A stretch of 34,897 nucleotides of DNA, taken from assembly GCA_030648495.1 (NCBI GenBank), contig JAUSHV010000030.1:1-34897 (forward strand). Direction: 5' to 3'. Below are positions 4,604 to 13,517 of this stretch, piece by piece. The position numbers and the translations under genes are program-made. Source of the DNA: a bacterium (lineage in GTDB: Bacteria; Patescibacteriota; Minisyncoccia; UBA11713; 2-01-FULL-45-33). Every line of letters begins with the position of its first letter. Position 1 is the first letter of the stretch. The notes under the pieces are model-generated. The model searched no databases. It was not told the origin of the DNA and saw nothing but the letters and a program-made list of their open reading frames with translations.

Positions 4604-4993
4604 ATGGGAGTAAGAATAGCCGATTATCCAGAAACGCCCAAAAATTCAGATAAAATAATGAAGGTGGCAAGATACCACGATCACGAAACAGTAGAAGAGG
4701 TAAATGTGTCGGAGTTGGCAAAGAACATATTGACCGCCGGTAGCAATGTCGCTGGGCGATACGCCTACGTAAAAGATTTCCCGCGCTTCGAATGTTCTAT
4801 CGGGATTCCTGACTTTGTAACGTTGGAAAAAAATATTACGGACTACTTCAGCAAGTATAATGCTGATTGCCTCAAAAGATTTGCCAAAAGAGAAACCGAG
4901 CATACTGCGGAGCGCGTAAAAAACTTAGCCGAAAAACTTGGAATTGCAGTCGAAGAAAGCAAACCAATCAGCGGCGTGCCAATGCTGGAATAA
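4604..4993 (+). CDS. Hypothetical protein (~129 aa)
   Basis: SD AGGGAGGAA 5 nt upstream of ATG 4604; promoter upstream and intrinsic terminator downstream. No recognised family. Confidence 0.7.
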   Translation: MGVRIADYPETPKNSDKIMKVARYHDHETVEEVNVSELAKNILTAGSNVAGRYAYVKDFPRFECSIGIPDFVTLEKNITDYFSKYNADCLKRFAKRETEHTAERVKNLAEKLGIAVEESKPISGVPMLE

Positions 4994-7007: not shown

Positions 7008-7976
7008 TTATAGCAACGAAATTAACACTTTAGCGAGTTTTTGGCGGGGATTGTGACGGATGAATGGCCCGTCGTCCAAAAGGTCGGCAAAAATATATTT
7101 TGAACTATTATTGTTAGAAACCGAGCTTCTAACAATTGGGGGGTCGATAAATTCCGCCTTTTCTTTTTTGTATCTTTTAAGCACTTTTGCGTGTGGTTTT
7201 CTATTGTTGAAAACGGCATAATCTAAACCGCCGTGCCCTAAATATTTTTCTATCTCGCCTATAAAATCCTCCGCTTTAAAATCATGCGTCTCTCCGAATT
7301 TAGTCATAAGATTACAAACATAAACTTTTTTTGCCTTTGATTTTTTTAACGCCTCCGGAACCCCTTTAACCAAAAGGTTTGGTATGAGGCTGGTATATAA
7401 ATCGCCGGGTCCTATGATGACCAAATCTGCTTCCAAAATCGCATTCTTTGCAGCGGCGTTAATTTTGGCAGAGGGGCTTAGCCAAACTTTTTCTATTTTT
7501 GCGCGCAATTTGGTTTTAGGAATATCTATATTTGTCTCGCCTTTTATTATTTTGCCGTCTGAAAGTTTTGCATTGAGCCTTACGTTGTCCAAAGTAACCG
7601 GCAATACTCTGCCGCGGACATTGAGTACGCGCGAAGCTTCAAGCACCGCGGAGGCAAAATCTCCTTTAATTTTTTCTAATGCGCTTAAAAAAATATTTCC
7701 GAAACTGTATCCGGCCAGTCCACCGCTTTCAAATCTATAATTGAAAAGTTTGCGCAATGTTTCGCTTTCCTGGGAAAGCGCGACTAAAGCCCGCCGCACA
7801 TCTCCGGGCGGCAAAACGCCATATTGGTCGCGCAAAATGCCTGTTGACCCGCCGTCATCAGCCATTGAAACGATAGCAGTAAGATCCAAGGGGTAACCCT
7901 TTAGAGCCGAGAGCACCATAAAAGTCCCCGTACCCCCGCCGATTACCACCACTTTCTTTTTTTTGGATTGCGACAT
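7008..7976 (-). CDS. yvcK: YvcK/CofD-like gluconeogenesis factor
   Basis: 'VVVIGGGTGTFMVLSALKGYPLDLTAIVSMADDGGSTGILRDQYGVLPPGDVRRALVALS', 'VIIGPGDLYTSLIPNLLVKGV'. Confidence 0.95.
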   Translation of the reverse strand: MSQSKKKKVVVIGGGTGTFMVLSALKGYPLDLTAIVSMADDGGSTGILRDQYGVLPPGDVRRALVALSQESETLRKLFNYRFESGGLAGYSFGNIFLSALEKIKGDFASAVLEASRVLNVRGRVLPVTLDNVRLNAKLSDGKIIKGETNIDIPKTKLRAKIEKVWLSPSAKINAAAKNAILEADLVIIGPGDLYTSLIPNLLVKGVPEALKKSKAKKVYVCNLMTKFGETHDFKAEDFIGEIEKYLGHGGLDYAVFNNRKPHAKVLKRYKKEKAEFIDPPIVRSSVSNNNSSKYIFADLLDDGPFIRHNPRQKLAKVLISLL

Positions 7977-8015: not shown

Positions 8016-9002
8016 ATGCGAAGAAGTTCAAGCTACCACGATACTAGTTGGGCGGAGCTGTATAAATTTGGCGTAAAGTTCGCCTATCCTGAAAAGCCTG
8101 ACCGGTATAATATCGACGATTCTGTCCGGTTTGGCGAGGGCGTTATTATCTGGCCTGATGTGATTTTGGACGGAAACATTACCATCGGTAAAAATTCCGA
8201 AATAGGCAAAGGCGCCGTCATCATCGGGACAATATACATCGGCAACAATGTTAAGATTAAAGACTATATTAAAATAACCGGTGAAGGATATATTGGAGAC
8301 AACTCCGAAATCGGACACGACATCCATAACCCAAAAATCGGCACGAATTGCAAAATTGGCGACGCCGTAATCATTGACTCGATAATTTCCGACAACTGCG
8401 AGATAGGCACGCGAGGACACGCTGTAATTGAAAGATCGTTTCTCGGAACAGGTGTGAAAGCGAAGCACTCTTGCGGAATCAGAGATGCTTACATCGATTA
8501 TGACGTCAACATCAGCGAATTTGTTACCATCGCAAATCTTGCCGCGGGGAAAAAAAGCAGGACGAAAATCGGCAGCCGGACAATGATAGGCGTTGCGGTA
8601 AGAATTATGGGCGGCTCCGAAATAGGAGAAGAATGTTATATCGCCGACGGCGCGAGAGTGGATGGCACTCTTGCTCCGCGCACTTATTTCAATCCGGGCC
8701 GAGCATTAAAGAATACGCAATTCTGCGCTAGGCAAAGCAATTGCTCCTGGTATTTGGCAGGAATGTATCTTGTGCTGAAACGGGCAATTGGTCCGAAAGA
8801 GAGAATCTCTTTTCATGTAAAAGCATTTCAAAAATGCTGGCAAGACGGCGATGCGCTTAAAGAATGGTTAAAAACGCCAATTTTGCATTTGGGTGGCAGA
8901 ACGCCGCTTGAAGCTTTACAAACCGACGGCGAAAAAAACTTTGATTGTATCCTCGGTGAATGCAAATGCTCGAAACCGGAAGAAAAACCAGCACAAAAAT
9001 AG
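8016..9002 (+). CDS. Left-handed beta-helix hexapeptide-repeat transferase-like protein with a DUF2384-like C-terminal motif
   Basis: Many I/V-G-x-x hexads ('ITIGKNSEIGKGAVIIGTIYIGNNVKI...'); C-terminus 'AFQKCWQDGDALKEWLKTPILHLGGRTPLEALQTDGEKNFDCIL'. SD AAGGAG upstream of ATG. Confidence 0.85.
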   Translation: MRRSSSYHDTSWAELYKFGVKFAYPEKPDRYNIDDSVRFGEGVIIWPDVILDGNITIGKNSEIGKGAVIIGTIYIGNNVKIKDYIKITGEGYIGDNSEIGHDIHNPKIGTNCKIGDAVIIDSIISDNCEIGTRGHAVIERSFLGTGVKAKHSCGIRDAYIDYDVNISEFVTIANLAAGKKSRTKIGSRTMIGVAVRIMGGSEIGEECYIADGARVDGTLAPRTYFNPGRALKNTQFCARQSNCSWYLAGMYLVLKRAIGPKERISFHVKAFQKCWQDGDALKEWLKTPILHLGGRTPLEALQTDGEKNFDCILGECKCSKPEEKPAQK

Positions 9003-9564: not shown

Positions 9565-10260
9565 TTATATCTCTTTTATTTGGCGGGCGCGTAAAACATC
9601 TTCTGCTTTTTTGATGTCTTCCGGATATCCGATGGGAAGCCAAAAGTCTGCTTTCACCGCGAACATTTCATAGTCGCGCACCATCTGCGAGAGCGAATCC
9701 GTTATATAGTATTCGCCGTTGGGATGCTGTTTGGCGGGATAATTGAAAATTTTTGAATCAAGCACCTTAACCCCTGTGGAAGCAAGGTTGGATGGCGGCA
9801 CGATAGGTTTTTCAATAAGATCCAAAACTTTCCCATTGTCATCAGCCGTGATAACTCCGAATTTGCGGGGGTCTTCAACTTCTTTGACCATTATAGATAA
9901 CGGGTGCGCCAAACATTTTTTAATATCTTCTTTTGATTGAAGGTCGTCGGCATAAAGCATCAAAAAACGTTCATCGTGCAGAAACCGACGCACAAGCCAC
10001 AAAGCGTGCGCGGTACCCAATTTTTTGGGCTGATGCACATAAGTTATTTTTTTCCCGCCGAACGACTCGCTAAAATAATTCCTTATCTGGTCCTCCAAAT
10101 ATCCTACAACCATTATTACCTCGTCTATCTCATCAGGCAACGCATCAAAAATGTGATGCAAAAGCGGTCGGCCCAAAATCTCTATCATCGGCTTTGGACG
10201 CGACACAGTTAAGGGACGCATCCTCAAACCTTCTCCCGCGGCCAATATTACAGCTTTCAT
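9565..10260 (-). CDS. Sugar-nucleotide nucleotidyltransferase (NTP_transferase family)
   Basis: 'MKAVILAAGEGLRMRPLTVSRPKPMIEILGRPLLHHIFDAL' nucleotidyltransferase signature. Start reassigned to ATG at 10260. Confidence 0.92.
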   Translation of the reverse strand: MKAVILAAGEGLRMRPLTVSRPKPMIEILGRPLLHHIFDALPDEIDEVIMVVGYLEDQIRNYFSESFGGKKITYVHQPKKLGTAHALWLVRRFLHDERFLMLYADDLQSKEDIKKCLAHPLSIMVKEVEDPRKFGVITADDNGKVLDLIEKPIVPPSNLASTGVKVLDSKIFNYPAKQHPNGEYYITDSLSQMVRDYEMFAVKADFWLPIGYPEDIKKAEDVLRARQIKEI

Positions 10261-10264
10261 ATTA

Positions 10265-10693
10265 TTATTTTTTAACCAGCAAAGAATTAGCTTTTTTAAT
10301 AGTATTTTTATTATTCTCATGCTTCAAAATTTTAAGCGCTTCGCGGTATGTAAACCAGCCATAGCCGTCGTGCTCCTCTGAAACGGCGACTTCTTGCTTC
10401 CTGCTTTGCGCAAGATAAAATATGACAATTTTAAAAATCCGTTTTTTATCCCTGAAAAAAAAGAATCTGTCCGTAACCCGGAACTGATCTTTTAAAACCA
10501 AATCGTTTTTACCCAAGCCTGTCTCTTCTTTAACTTCACGAAACGCCGCATCCATTCCTCTTTCGCTTTGTTCGAGCTTCCCTTTTGGAAAATTCCAATA
10601 TCCTCCGCCATGGTACATCAGCAGATATTTAATACCTTCTCTGGTATTTCTATATATAACTAATCCGGCTGAAATCTCCCTATCTGCTGTCAT
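10265..10693 (-). CDS. NUDIX hydrolase
   Basis: Nudix box 'GKLEQSERGMDAAFREVKEETGLG'. Confidence 0.92.
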   Translation of the reverse strand: MTADREISAGLVIYRNTREGIKYLLMYHGGGYWNFPKGKLEQSERGMDAAFREVKEETGLGKNDLVLKDQFRVTDRFFFFRDKKRIFKIVIFYLAQSRKQEVAVSEEHDGYGWFTYREALKILKHENNKNTIKKANSLLVKK

Positions 10694-11645
10694 TTTTTTG
10701 TTTTTTCCACTCTACTTTTAATTTTTGATTTACTGCATCATACAAAGCACTTTCGAAACCGCCTTTATTCTCCGGATTCGAGTATAAATTTTTCATTTCG
10801 TCAAAGCTAAATAGTGCACCAACTTCCCGCAACATCTTCAATTGTTCCAAGGAGTCATCTGATTTCTTTTTAAAATCCTTACTAAAATATTTCCCAACTA
10901 ACGTTTCGAACATTGCTCTCAAAACCAATTCGTCGCCTACCTTTTTATCGAACATATGTCGCCTAAGGGCCTCACTACGCGAATCGAAGACTATGGGCGT
11001 GTCGCCAAATTCTCTTTTAACATCATAGGCTTTTTTATCCAATTCGTGAAATAATCCTGTATGAAAAGCGCCTAAAGACAATAATAATTTCAACTGCTTT
11101 TTATTTTGAAGTTCCGGATATTTTTCAACAACTTCCCGCATTTTTGGTTCTAATTGCAATATCATGTATTCCTCTCGTTTTTTTTCGAAAACAGCTTCTT
11201 TTAGTAAAAAATCTTTAGTGTACTCCAAATCTTCTTCAAAGTTTTGTAATTTTGGTTTGAATAAAATTTCTCTATATTCTTTTATAAGATCGTGGTCGAG
11301 CGGCACATCCACAAAAACCACCGGTTTATGAGAACCGTAAATAATTTCAAATCTCTTGAGATGATATCCATACATTTTCGAATCATCTAGATGCAGCTCT
11401 ATTACGGCTTCGGCAGGGGTTTTCCTGCCATCCGAAACCGCCTGATAAGTTTCTAAAACTTTGAGGGAAGTACCAATCCATTCTGGGACATAAATATCCG
11501 CTTCCAAAAATTTTTCCTGTAATTCGCCTATATCCTTGGCATTACCGTGCGCCGAATAATAAATCTCAATAGACAACGGCGGTAGCTCGCGATTTTCTGG
11601 TTTCTTAGTATCCGATTCTAATTGTATACCTGCCTCTTCTTTCAT
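10680..11645 (-). CDS. Hypothetical protein (321 aa)
   Basis: Long ORF, 14-bp overlap with the NUDIX gene; no confident family. 'LLLSLGAFHTGLFHEL' is only weakly suggestive of a TraB/Tiki-like GxxH motif. Confidence 0.75.
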   Translation of the reverse strand: MKEEAGIQLESDTKKPENRELPPLSIEIYYSAHGNAKDIGELQEKFLEADIYVPEWIGTSLKVLETYQAVSDGRKTPAEAVIELHLDDSKMYGYHLKRFEIIYGSHKPVVFVDVPLDHDLIKEYREILFKPKLQNFEEDLEYTKDFLLKEAVFEKKREEYMILQLEPKMREVVEKYPELQNKKQLKLLLSLGAFHTGLFHELDKKAYDVKREFGDTPIVFDSRSEALRRHMFDKKVGDELVLRAMFETLVGKYFSKDFKKKSDDSLEQLKMLREVGALFSFDEMKNLYSNPENKGGFESALYDAVNQKLKVEWKKQKNDSR

Positions 11646-11652
11646 ACTTATA

Positions 11653-13503
11653 TTATTCCACAGTTACGGATTTAGCCAAATTACGCGGCTTATCCACATC
11701 TAAACCAAGTAAATCGGCGGTGTGATACGCGAAAAGCTGGAGTGGAATTACGGAAAGTAGGGGGGAGAGCGCCTCAAGTGTCTCTGGGATAAAAACAACA
11801 TCATCCGCGAGCTTCTTAATTTTTTCATCTCCTTCGGTCGCCACAGCAATAATTTTTCCGCCTCTCGCGCGGATCTCCTCTATGTTTGATATGGTTTTTT
11901 CATAAACCGCGTCTTTGGGAACAAGCGCGAAGACCGGAAAATTTTCATCAATCAATGCGATCGGTCCGTGTTTCATCTCTCCAGCCGCATAACCCTCGGC
12001 ATGCTTATAAGAAATCTCTTTAAGTTTAAGTGCGCCTTCCATGGCTACCGGAAATTGATATTTTCTGCCAAAATAAATAAAGTTTTTATATTTTAAATAT
12101 TTTTTAGCAAGTTTTTTTATTTCTTTATCCTTTTTTAAAATTTGTTCCATCTTGCCCGGCATTAATTTAAGTTCCGGAAGAATCTTATTCACTAACGTCT
12201 CCGGTAAAGTGCCTCGATTACCGGCAAAATAAAGCGCTATCAATGAAAGCGCGCCGACTTGGGAAATAAAAGCTTTGGTTGAAGCAACTCCGATTTCTGG
12301 TCCTGCGTGATTATAAACCCCGGCGTCCGATTCCCGCGCAATTGTTGAACCAACCGTGTTTACGATGCCCAAGGTCAATGCCCCGCGCTTTTTTGCCTCT
12401 CTTAAGGCCTGCAAGGTATCGGCCGTCTCCCCGGATTGAGAAATTAAAATCACGGCGTCTCCCTCTCCTATAGCCGGGTTTCCGTAACGGAATTCCGAGG
12501 CGTGCTCAACCGAGGCTGGTATTTTCGCAAACTCTTCAAAATAATATTTGCCGATGAGCCCGGAATAATAAGAGGTTCCGCAGGCTGTTATTATAATTCT
12601 TTTGATATTTTTTAATTTTTTCTCGAGATCTTTTAGGCCCCCGAGTTTAACTTTTCCGATATCCGACAAAATTCTTCCGCGCAAAACATTTCTCAAAGCT
12701 TCGGGCCCTTCAAAAATTTCTTTTTGCATAAAATGCTTATAGCCGCCTTTCTGGGCACTTTCCAAGTCCCAATCAATTTTATCTATCGATTTATTGAGAA
12801 TTTTTTTTGAAAAATTATATATTTTCAAATCCTCCGGCGTGAGAACCGCCATTTCATTGTCATGTAAATAAACAACATTTTTTGTGTGTTCCACTATTGC
12901 CGAGGCATCGGAAGCAATCAGATATTCCTTTTCTCCCAATCCTAAAATAATCGGCGAGCCTCGGCGGGCGACAACGATTTTCCCCGGATCGTTTTTAGAA
13001 ATAAGAGCAAGTCCAAAAGTGCCGATAACGTGCCTTAGCGCTTCAGGCAAAGCGTCTTCAAGAACGACCTTCCCATTCCCCATTGTAAGCTCGCGCTCAA
13101 CCAAATGCACCAAAACTTCGGTGTCCGTCTCCGACCTGAAAACATGTCCCTCACGGGTCAGGGCCTCTTTCAGCTCTGCATAATTTTCTACAATACCGTT
13201 ATGTACCAAAAATATATTTTCAGCGCAATCGGCGTGAGGATGCGAATTTTTATCCGAAGGTTTGCCGTGCGTCGCCCAACGGGTATGTCCAATCGCCGTG
13301 TGGCTCTCCCAAGATTTCTCTGAAAGCCTTGTTTCTAGCGCGGCGACGCGGCCTGTGGTTTTTTCCCAAAGAATTTTGCCGCTCCCTTGATCCCACAAAG
13401 CTACGCCGGCAGAATCATAGCCGCGATACTCCAGCCTTTTTAAACCCTCAAGCACAATTGGCAAGGCGCTTTTTTTGCCGATATATCCCACGATTCCGCA
13501 CAT
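11653..13503 (-). CDS. glmS: Glutamine--fructose-6-phosphate aminotransferase (isomerizing)
   Basis: 'MCGIVGYIGKKSALPIVLEGLKRLEYRGYDSAGVA' (catalytic Cys2), SIS domains 'TACGTSYYSG', 'SQSGETADTLQALREAKKRGA', C-terminus 'DKPRNLAKSVTVE'. Start set at ATG 13503. Confidence 0.98.
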   Translation of the reverse strand: MCGIVGYIGKKSALPIVLEGLKRLEYRGYDSAGVALWDQGSGKILWEKTTGRVAALETRLSEKSWESHTAIGHTRWATHGKPSDKNSHPHADCAENIFLVHNGIVENYAELKEALTREGHVFRSETDTEVLVHLVERELTMGNGKVVLEDALPEALRHVIGTFGLALISKNDPGKIVVARRGSPIILGLGEKEYLIASDASAIVEHTKNVVYLHDNEMAVLTPEDLKIYNFSKKILNKSIDKIDWDLESAQKGGYKHFMQKEIFEGPEALRNVLRGRILSDIGKVKLGGLKDLEKKLKNIKRIIITACGTSYYSGLIGKYYFEEFAKIPASVEHASEFRYGNPAIGEGDAVILISQSGETADTLQALREAKKRGALTLGIVNTVGSTIARESDAGVYNHAGPEIGVASTKAFISQVGALSLIALYFAGNRGTLPETLVNKILPELKLMPGKMEQILKKDKEIKKLAKKYLKYKNFIYFGRKYQFPVAMEGALKLKEISYKHAEGYAAGEMKHGPIALIDENFPVFALVPKDAVYEKTISNIEEIRARGGKIIAVATEGDEKIKKLADDVVFIPETLEALSPLLSVIPLQLFAYHTADLLGLDVDKPRNLAKSVTVE

Positions 13504-13517
13504 ATTATAATTGTAAA

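What the first reader, a model, noticed from the sequence alone, without database searches (positions are those of the whole stretch)
8016..9002. Hexapeptide beta-helix protein ending in a DUF2384 (MbcA/ParS/Xre toxin-binding)-like domain
Seen: after the beta-helix, the C-terminus reads 'AFQKCWQDGDALKEWLKTPILHLGGRTPLEALQTDGEKNFDCILGEC'. Knowledge: DUF2384/PF09722 domains, normally the C-terminal part of Xre/ParS/MbcA antitoxins binding RES-type toxins, have the pattern 'fgd.ekAl.WLrtPnpaLGGrtPlelL.te.G...v..lL'. Fusion to an acyl/nucleotidyltransferase-type beta-helix is unexpected and no RES toxin is visible nearby. Inference: the domain may have been repurposed as an interaction module.
Basis: partly seen in the sequence, partly recalled or inferred. 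Interest (0 to 1): 0.6.

Follow-up and report, generated by a model that had tools for sequence, protein, structure and literature searches.

The report
Sugar enzyme carrying an antitoxin domain
A cell-wall-sugar enzyme subunit of a tiny uncultured bacterium really does end in the toxin-gripping domain of bacterial antitoxins, with no matching toxin in the genome, so the domain has probably been reused to dock the enzyme onto something else, most likely its pathway partners.

Summary
The 328-aa ORF 8016-9002(+) is a left-handed beta-helix followed by a true Xre/MbcA/ParS (PF09722, DUF2384) domain: it passes Pfam's gathering score (27.7 vs 24.5 bits), and an AlphaFold model of residues 241-328 (pLDDT 88) has as its 13 best PDB matches only Xre, MbcA, ParS, NatR and VPA0769 antitoxins. 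No RES toxin is found in this genome or, above cut-off, in 23 related ones. The beta-helix is the acetyltransferase half of GlmU: the neighbouring gene is a single-domain nucleotidyltransferase (the other half), and the cluster also holds GlmS and the UDP-GlcNAc-binding GlmR/YvcK. The organism is a Patescibacterium near Ca. Giovannonibacteria. The fusion is conserved in five genomes of its family and recurs in three genomes of two other families, again beside GlmS and/or GlmR; 16 relatives have the same split enzyme without the tail. Catalytic His151 and Asn165/Asn174/Lys180 are kept, but the GlmU Glu349 and Tyr366 positions have changed. Most likely it is a split, diverged GlmU acetyltransferase whose antitoxin-derived tail is a docking module. 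The tail's identity is well shown; its partner and the enzyme's activity are inferred.

The parts
8016..9002 (+). Fusion protein, 328 aa: GlmU-C-like left-handed beta-helix plus Xre/MbcA/ParS (PF09722) tail
8112..8675 (+). Left-handed beta-helix, residues ~33-220, aligned to GlmU profile TIGR01173 positions 241-425
8466..8468 (+). His151, equivalent of the catalytic His363 of E. coli GlmU; invariant in all 24 stand-alone relatives
8508..8555 (+). Asn165, Asn174, Lys180 = E. coli GlmU Asn377, Asn386, Lys392 (conserved); nearby, the Glu349 position is Val137 and the Tyr366 position is Gly154 (not conserved)
8745..8960 (+). C-terminal domain, residues 244-315: short hairpin plus helices 260-273, 278-285, 297-312; Xre/MbcA/ParS fold
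8844..8927 (+). Core PF09722 match, residues 277-304 (LKEWLKTPILHLGGRTPLEAL)
8946..8969 (+). C311-x4-C316-x-C318 at the end of the last helix; C-x4-C-x-[CH] in three of four family relatives, no known role
9565..10320 (-). Single-domain sugar nucleotidyltransferase, best profile Arch_glmU (TIGR03992) N-terminal half: probable uridylyltransferase half of the split GlmU
7008..7976 (-). GlmR/YvcK, UDP-GlcNAc-binding protein (TIGR01826, over cut-off)
11653..13506 (-). GlmS (TIGR01135, over cut-off)
10265..10693 (-). NUDIX hydrolase between the nucleotidyltransferase and GlmS; also next to the nucleotidyltransferase in G001 and G002

Best explanation
It is the acetyltransferase subunit of a split GlmU. 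In most bacteria one GlmU chain acetylates glucosamine-1-phosphate with a C-terminal beta-helix and then makes UDP-GlcNAc with an N-terminal nucleotidyltransferase domain. Here the two halves are separate genes in one cluster with GlmS and GlmR. The beta-helix would form a trimer whose active sites (His151, Asn174, Lys180) bind acetyl-CoA and the sugar phosphate. The C-terminal antitoxin-fold domain, three copies per trimer, no longer neutralises a toxin; it acts as a docking module that restores the lost physical link to pathway partners: the nucleotidyltransferase, GlmR or GlmS. Shown here: tail homology and predicted fold, GlmU-type beta-helix, absence of RES, gene cluster, recurrence of the fusion. 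Inferred: trimer, acetyltransferase activity, and docking to a pathway partner.
For: Tail: PF09722 over cut-off, hhalign to true DUF2384 proteins, all top PDB fold matches are DUF2384 antitoxins and the top two viral ones are named Xre antitoxins. GlmU origin: TIGR01173 is the best NCBIfam match (73.2 bits, positions 241-425) and E. coli GlmU the best PDB fold match (low TM because the monomeric helix model bends). The only GlmU-like pieces of the genome are this ORF and the neighbouring NTase, apart from a third, weaker NTase on C55. His/Asn/Asn/Lys conserved. GlmS and GlmR pass their curated cut-offs; MurA, a consumer of UDP-GlcNAc, and a phosphohexomutase are present. GlmR lies beside the stand-alone beta-helix in 19 of 24 genomes, GlmR or GlmS in 20. 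In G201, another family, GlmS, NTase, tailed beta-helix and GlmR also lie within about 10 kb. No RES over cut-off in any of 24 genomes. GlmR of Listeria is itself an accessory uridyltransferase (PMC10128056) and Bacillus GlmR interacts with GlmS (PMC7525490, abstract), so physical contacts inside this pathway are known.
Against: No partner of the tail was shown. The Glu349 and Tyr366 positions of GlmU are changed in this protein, and the tailed proteins as a group keep them less often than the untailed ones (not corrected for relatedness), so activity may be altered or lost. Sixteen relatives do without the tail, so it is not needed for a split GlmU in general. In G008 the NTase is beside GlmS and not beside the beta-helix.
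Confidence: 0.48

Rival explanations
1. Same origin, but the tail works inside the trimer: it packs against its own or a neighbouring beta-helix, replacing the C-terminal arm of GlmU that helps bind acetyl-CoA, and has no outside partner.
For: The tail follows the beta-helix directly, with a conserved WYLxGxYL hairpin; the end of the PF09722 profile (positions 36-51), the last helix that meets the toxin in antitoxins, is not matched.
Against: Untailed relatives need no such domain; a whole toxin-binding fold is kept with high model confidence.
Confidence: 0.2
2. The beta-helix is no longer a GlcN-1-P acetyltransferase but another acyltransferase or a non-catalytic regulator of the UDP-GlcNAc pathway, tethered by the tail.
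For: The Glu349 and Tyr366 positions are Val137 and Gly154, and YDG is LAA in this protein; all five family members have Gly at the Tyr366 position.
Against: His, both Asn and Lys are kept; no other GlmU-C-like protein was found in the genome, which has GlmS and MurA.
Confidence: 0.2
3. The protein is an antitoxin, perhaps an orphan one: its tail neutralises a RES-type NAD-degrading toxin from this cell or a partner cell.
For: The tail has the antitoxin fold.
Against: No RES match in this genome at E<=10, none over cut-off in 24 genomes; no HTH; constant setting in a sugar-nucleotide cluster.
Confidence: 0.06
4. The PF09722 match is convergence on a GxTPLxxL motif that also occurs in ankyrin repeats and transposase ends.
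For: Weak PF09722 hits in other genomes include transposases (L038, L040); a tail profile also hits designed ankyrin repeats.
Against: Fold search gives DUF2384 antitoxins, no ankyrin; ParS and Xre pass as single stretches, the ankyrins do not; WLxTP precedes the motif.
Confidence: 0.04

Closest known systems
Xre/MbcA/ParS/NatR antitoxins (PF09722, DUF2384) of RES toxin-antitoxin systems
   Same: Core sequence motif and predicted fold of the C-terminal domain
   Different: Joined to a beta-helix enzyme instead of an HTH; no RES toxin; end of the profile unmatched
GlmU (bifunctional GlcN-1-P acetyltransferase / GlcNAc-1-P uridylyltransferase; TIGR01173, TIGR03992)
   Same: Beta-helix aligned to the acetyltransferase half, catalytic His and Asn/Asn/Lys kept, in a UDP-GlcNAc gene cluster
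   Different: Split into two genes; Glu349 and Tyr366 positions changed; extra C-terminal domain
Stand-alone GlmU-C-like beta-helix proteins of other Patescibacteria (L007-L013, L021, L059-L066)
   Same: Same half enzyme, mostly beside GlmR and/or GlmS
   Different: No antitoxin tail; more typical active-site residues

Membership tests
PF09722 Xre/MbcA/ParS toxin-binding domain | Profile score over the curated cut-off | tested here: met
   27.7 vs 24.5 bits
PF09722 Xre/MbcA/ParS toxin-binding domain | Antitoxin-domain fold | tested here: met
   Predicted model pLDDT 88; top 13 PDB fold matches are all family antitoxins, TM up to 0.50, rmsd 2.0-3.1 A for the better ones; single E-values weak
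Xre-RES type toxin-antitoxin system | RES-domain toxin encoded nearby or in the genome | tested here: not met
   No PF08808 match at E<=10; genome 96% complete
Xre-RES type toxin-antitoxin system | N-terminal HTH on the antitoxin | tested here: not met
   N-terminal part is a hexapeptide beta-helix; not every antitoxin of the family need have an HTH, so not decisive alone
Xre-RES type toxin-antitoxin system | C-terminal helix that enters the toxin active site (PMC11535050) | tested here: inconclusive
   Last helix predicted (297-312) but profile positions 36-51 not matched
GlmU acetyltransferase half | Beta-helix aligned to the GlmU C-terminal half | tested here: met
   TIGR01173 positions 241-425, 73.2 bits, best NCBIfam match
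GlmU acetyltransferase half | Catalytic His363 and Asn377, Asn386, Lys392 | tested here: met
   His151, Asn165, Asn174, Lys180
GlmU acetyltransferase half | Glu349 and Tyr366 | tested here: not met
   Val137 and Gly154
GlmU (bifunctional equivalog) | Equivalog score with both domains on one chain | tested here: not met
   73.2 vs 366.85 bits; the NTase half is a separate gene
GlmU acetyltransferase half | GlcN-1-P acetyltransferase activity, trimer | not testable with these tools
   Needs biochemistry

The most novel reading that the evidence does not exclude
A toxin-antitoxin recognition domain has been recruited, and kept or regained in at least three Patescibacteria families, to hold a split cell-wall precursor enzyme together as a UDP-GlcNAc metabolon, with GlmR and/or the separate nucleotidyltransferase as the docked uridylyltransferase.
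Probability: 0.25. Interest if true: 0.72.

Novelty: new variant of a known kind. Interest (0 to 1): 0.52.

Why it matters
It would show how a toxin-binding antitoxin domain can leave the toxin-antitoxin world and become a scaffold part of an essential pathway. It also points to a route to UDP-GlcNAc in reduced Patescibacteria that is split into separate genes and clustered with GlmR, which would make the disputed role of GlmR (GlmS activator or uridyltransferase) testable in a natural setting.

Tried and rejected
Chance motif: rejected by fold search and profile comparison, although the same GxTPLxxL motif does give weak hits in transposases and ankyrins. RES partner: none; the single weak hit in G008 (13.7 bits, a 28-residue piece with a stop) is below the cut-off. 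One origin or several for the tail: a beta-helix tree keeps family f1 apart from the rest (99/97) but leaves the f27 and f66 tails unresolved, so neither is claimed. The full-length fold search is of little use beyond naming GlmU, since the monomeric helix model bends (TM 0.2-0.3). A first residue table was off by one repeat for a few rows and was redone (use 66). Literature: no paper in the held library has DUF2384 together with hexapeptide, or any two of split GlmU, glucosamine-1-phosphate acetyltransferase and candidate phyla radiation. The repeat-like C-terminal piece of L004 has no Pfam match on its own.

Full report
What is there. The ORF 8016-9002(+) encodes 328 aa with an ATG start. 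Pfam finds hexapeptide repeats (4.4e-18) and, at residues 277-304, PF09722 Xre_MbcA_ParS_C (2.6e-6, 27.7 bits, gathering score 24.5, profile positions 8-35 of 51; the last 71 aa alone 2.4e-7). The window lies on contig C14 of a 0.82 Mb genome, 96% complete, in 64 contigs. Its close relatives are Candidatus Giovannonibacteria: the three related loci in the named genome collection carry that name.

Is the tail a real antitoxin domain? Three tests beyond the single Pfam hit agree. (i) A profile of eight tails against a profile of eight small DUF2384 proteins from other Patescibacteria: hhalign probability 94%, P 1e-7, over the WLxTP...GGRTPLE...G region. Some of those eight were themselves found by PF09722, so this is a check on consistency rather than a blind test. 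(ii) AlphaFold on the tail alignment gives a confident model (pLDDT 88, pTM 0.76; hairpin plus three helices), and the full-length model gives the same elements with pLDDT 93-95 in residues 261-310. Foldseek against the PDB ranks VPA0769, P. putida Xre, M. tuberculosis MbcA, ParS and P. aeruginosa NatR in places 1-13, and nothing sensible after that. No single E-value is below 0.1, for about 55 aligned residues, but thirteen of thirteen from one small family is not chance. The viral library also puts annotated Xre antitoxins first. (iii) PF09722 is the top Pfam family for the tails of L003, L004, L005, L026 and L031, at 23.0-25.6 bits; the tails of L006 and L057 are too diverged to score. A motif-only explanation was considered because GxTPLxxL also occurs in transposases and ankyrins; the fold result speaks against it.

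What the beta-helix is. Its best NCBIfam family is GlmU (TIGR01173, 73.2 bits, positions 241-425, the acetyltransferase half; the cut-off of 366.85 is not met, as half of the model is absent). The PDB fold search names E. coli GlmU first (low TM-scores). The genome holds three TIGR01173 matches: the N-terminal half in the neighbouring ORF 9565-10320(-), the C-terminal half in this ORF, and a weaker third nucleotidyltransferase on C55. The neighbour is a single-domain NTase closest to Arch_glmU (197 bits, positions 2-227). Aligned to E. coli GlmU, His151, Asn165, Asn174 and Lys180 stand at His363, Asn377, Asn386 and Lys392, while Glu349 is Val137, Tyr366 is Gly154 and the YDG triplet is LAA (E. 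coli numbering from my own knowledge of GlmU). E348 and H362 of the Staphylococcus and Streptococcus enzymes (E. coli 349 and 363) are called key catalytic residues (PMC11947611). So the protein keeps the base but not its acidic partner.

Neighbourhood. In order: GlmR/YvcK (7008-7976-), this ORF (+), NTase (9565-10320-), NUDIX (10265-10693-), a 321-aa ORF without any family (10680-11645-), GlmS (11653-13506-). MurA and a phosphohexomutase are elsewhere in the genome, so UDP-GlcNAc is presumably needed. Of 24 genomes with a stand-alone GlmU-C-like beta-helix, 19 have GlmR beside it and 20 have GlmR or GlmS. No Arch_glmU match over the cut-off was found in these genomes. GlmS is over cut-off in 22 of the 24; G001 and G031 are the exceptions. 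Three of the five family members without the beta-helix also lack GlmS (G003, G007, G009).

Distribution of the fusion. In family f1: G000, G001, G002, G004, G008. In f27: G201 and, diverged, G241. In f66: G257. These came out of PF09722 scans of 384 genomes of the class and a beta-helix profile search. A sample of 380 genomes across the phylum gave six further PF09722 matches and no further fusion among those I could read; two loci (L076, L080) were not resolved by my script. G201 repeats the whole set GlmS, NTase, tailed beta-helix, GlmR within about 10 kb. In G201 the gene ends at a TGA inside the domain; reading on gives a better PF09722 score (26.3 vs 24.4 bits), which may be a young truncation or a sequence error. 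Whether the tail arose once or several times is not resolved.

No toxin. PF08808 (RES) has no match in this genome at E<=10 and no match over cut-off in 24 genomes. With a 96% complete genome one missed gene is possible, but hardly in all eight tailed genomes.

Mechanism. In toxin-antitoxin systems the domain holds the RES toxin and its last helix extends into the toxin's active site (NatR-NatT, PMC11535050). Here the last part of the profile is not matched, which fits a domain that keeps the gripping fold but not the plug. GlmU normally has both activities on one chain. Where the chain is split, something else may hold the parts together. Bacillus GlmR is reported to interact with GlmS (PMC7525490), and Listeria GlmR makes UDP-GlcNAc from GlcNAc-1-P and UTP without acetyltransferase activity (PMC10128056). 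I therefore propose that the tail docks the acetyltransferase trimer to the NTase, GlmR or GlmS. This last step is inference; intramolecular packing and a changed enzyme function remain open.

Novelty. Both domains are known. The combination, its conservation and its recurrence in split-GlmU clusters are, as far as the held libraries show, undescribed; subscription papers, preprints and domain-architecture databases were not searched.

Noticed in passing
L007-L013, L021, L059-L066 (Patescibacteria loci): Stand-alone GlmU-C-like beta-helix genes lie beside GlmR/YvcK in 19 of 24 genomes, a split UDP-GlcNAc pathway cluster that seems general in part of the class.
   Followed up: partly
L004:1267-1476 (-): In G008 the tail is followed by a second stretch that looks like a diverged repeat of it (HLWMATSFSNGIFAGFTPLEILKMEGE), without a Pfam match of its own.
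   Followed up: partly
window 8946-8969 and L003, L005, L006: C-x4-C-x-[CH] at the end of the tail in four of five family members, a possible metal or redox site.
   Followed up: no
L026:1522-1524 (-): In G201 the tailed gene ends at a TGA inside the PF09722 domain, with the rest of the domain readable behind it.
   Followed up: partly
10680-11645 (-): 321-aa ORF without Pfam or NCBIfam match, between NUDIX and GlmS; in the close relative L073 GlmS directly follows NUDIX, so it looks like an insertion.
   Followed up: partly
4610-4990 (+): 127-aa ORF region without a significant family match.
   Followed up: no
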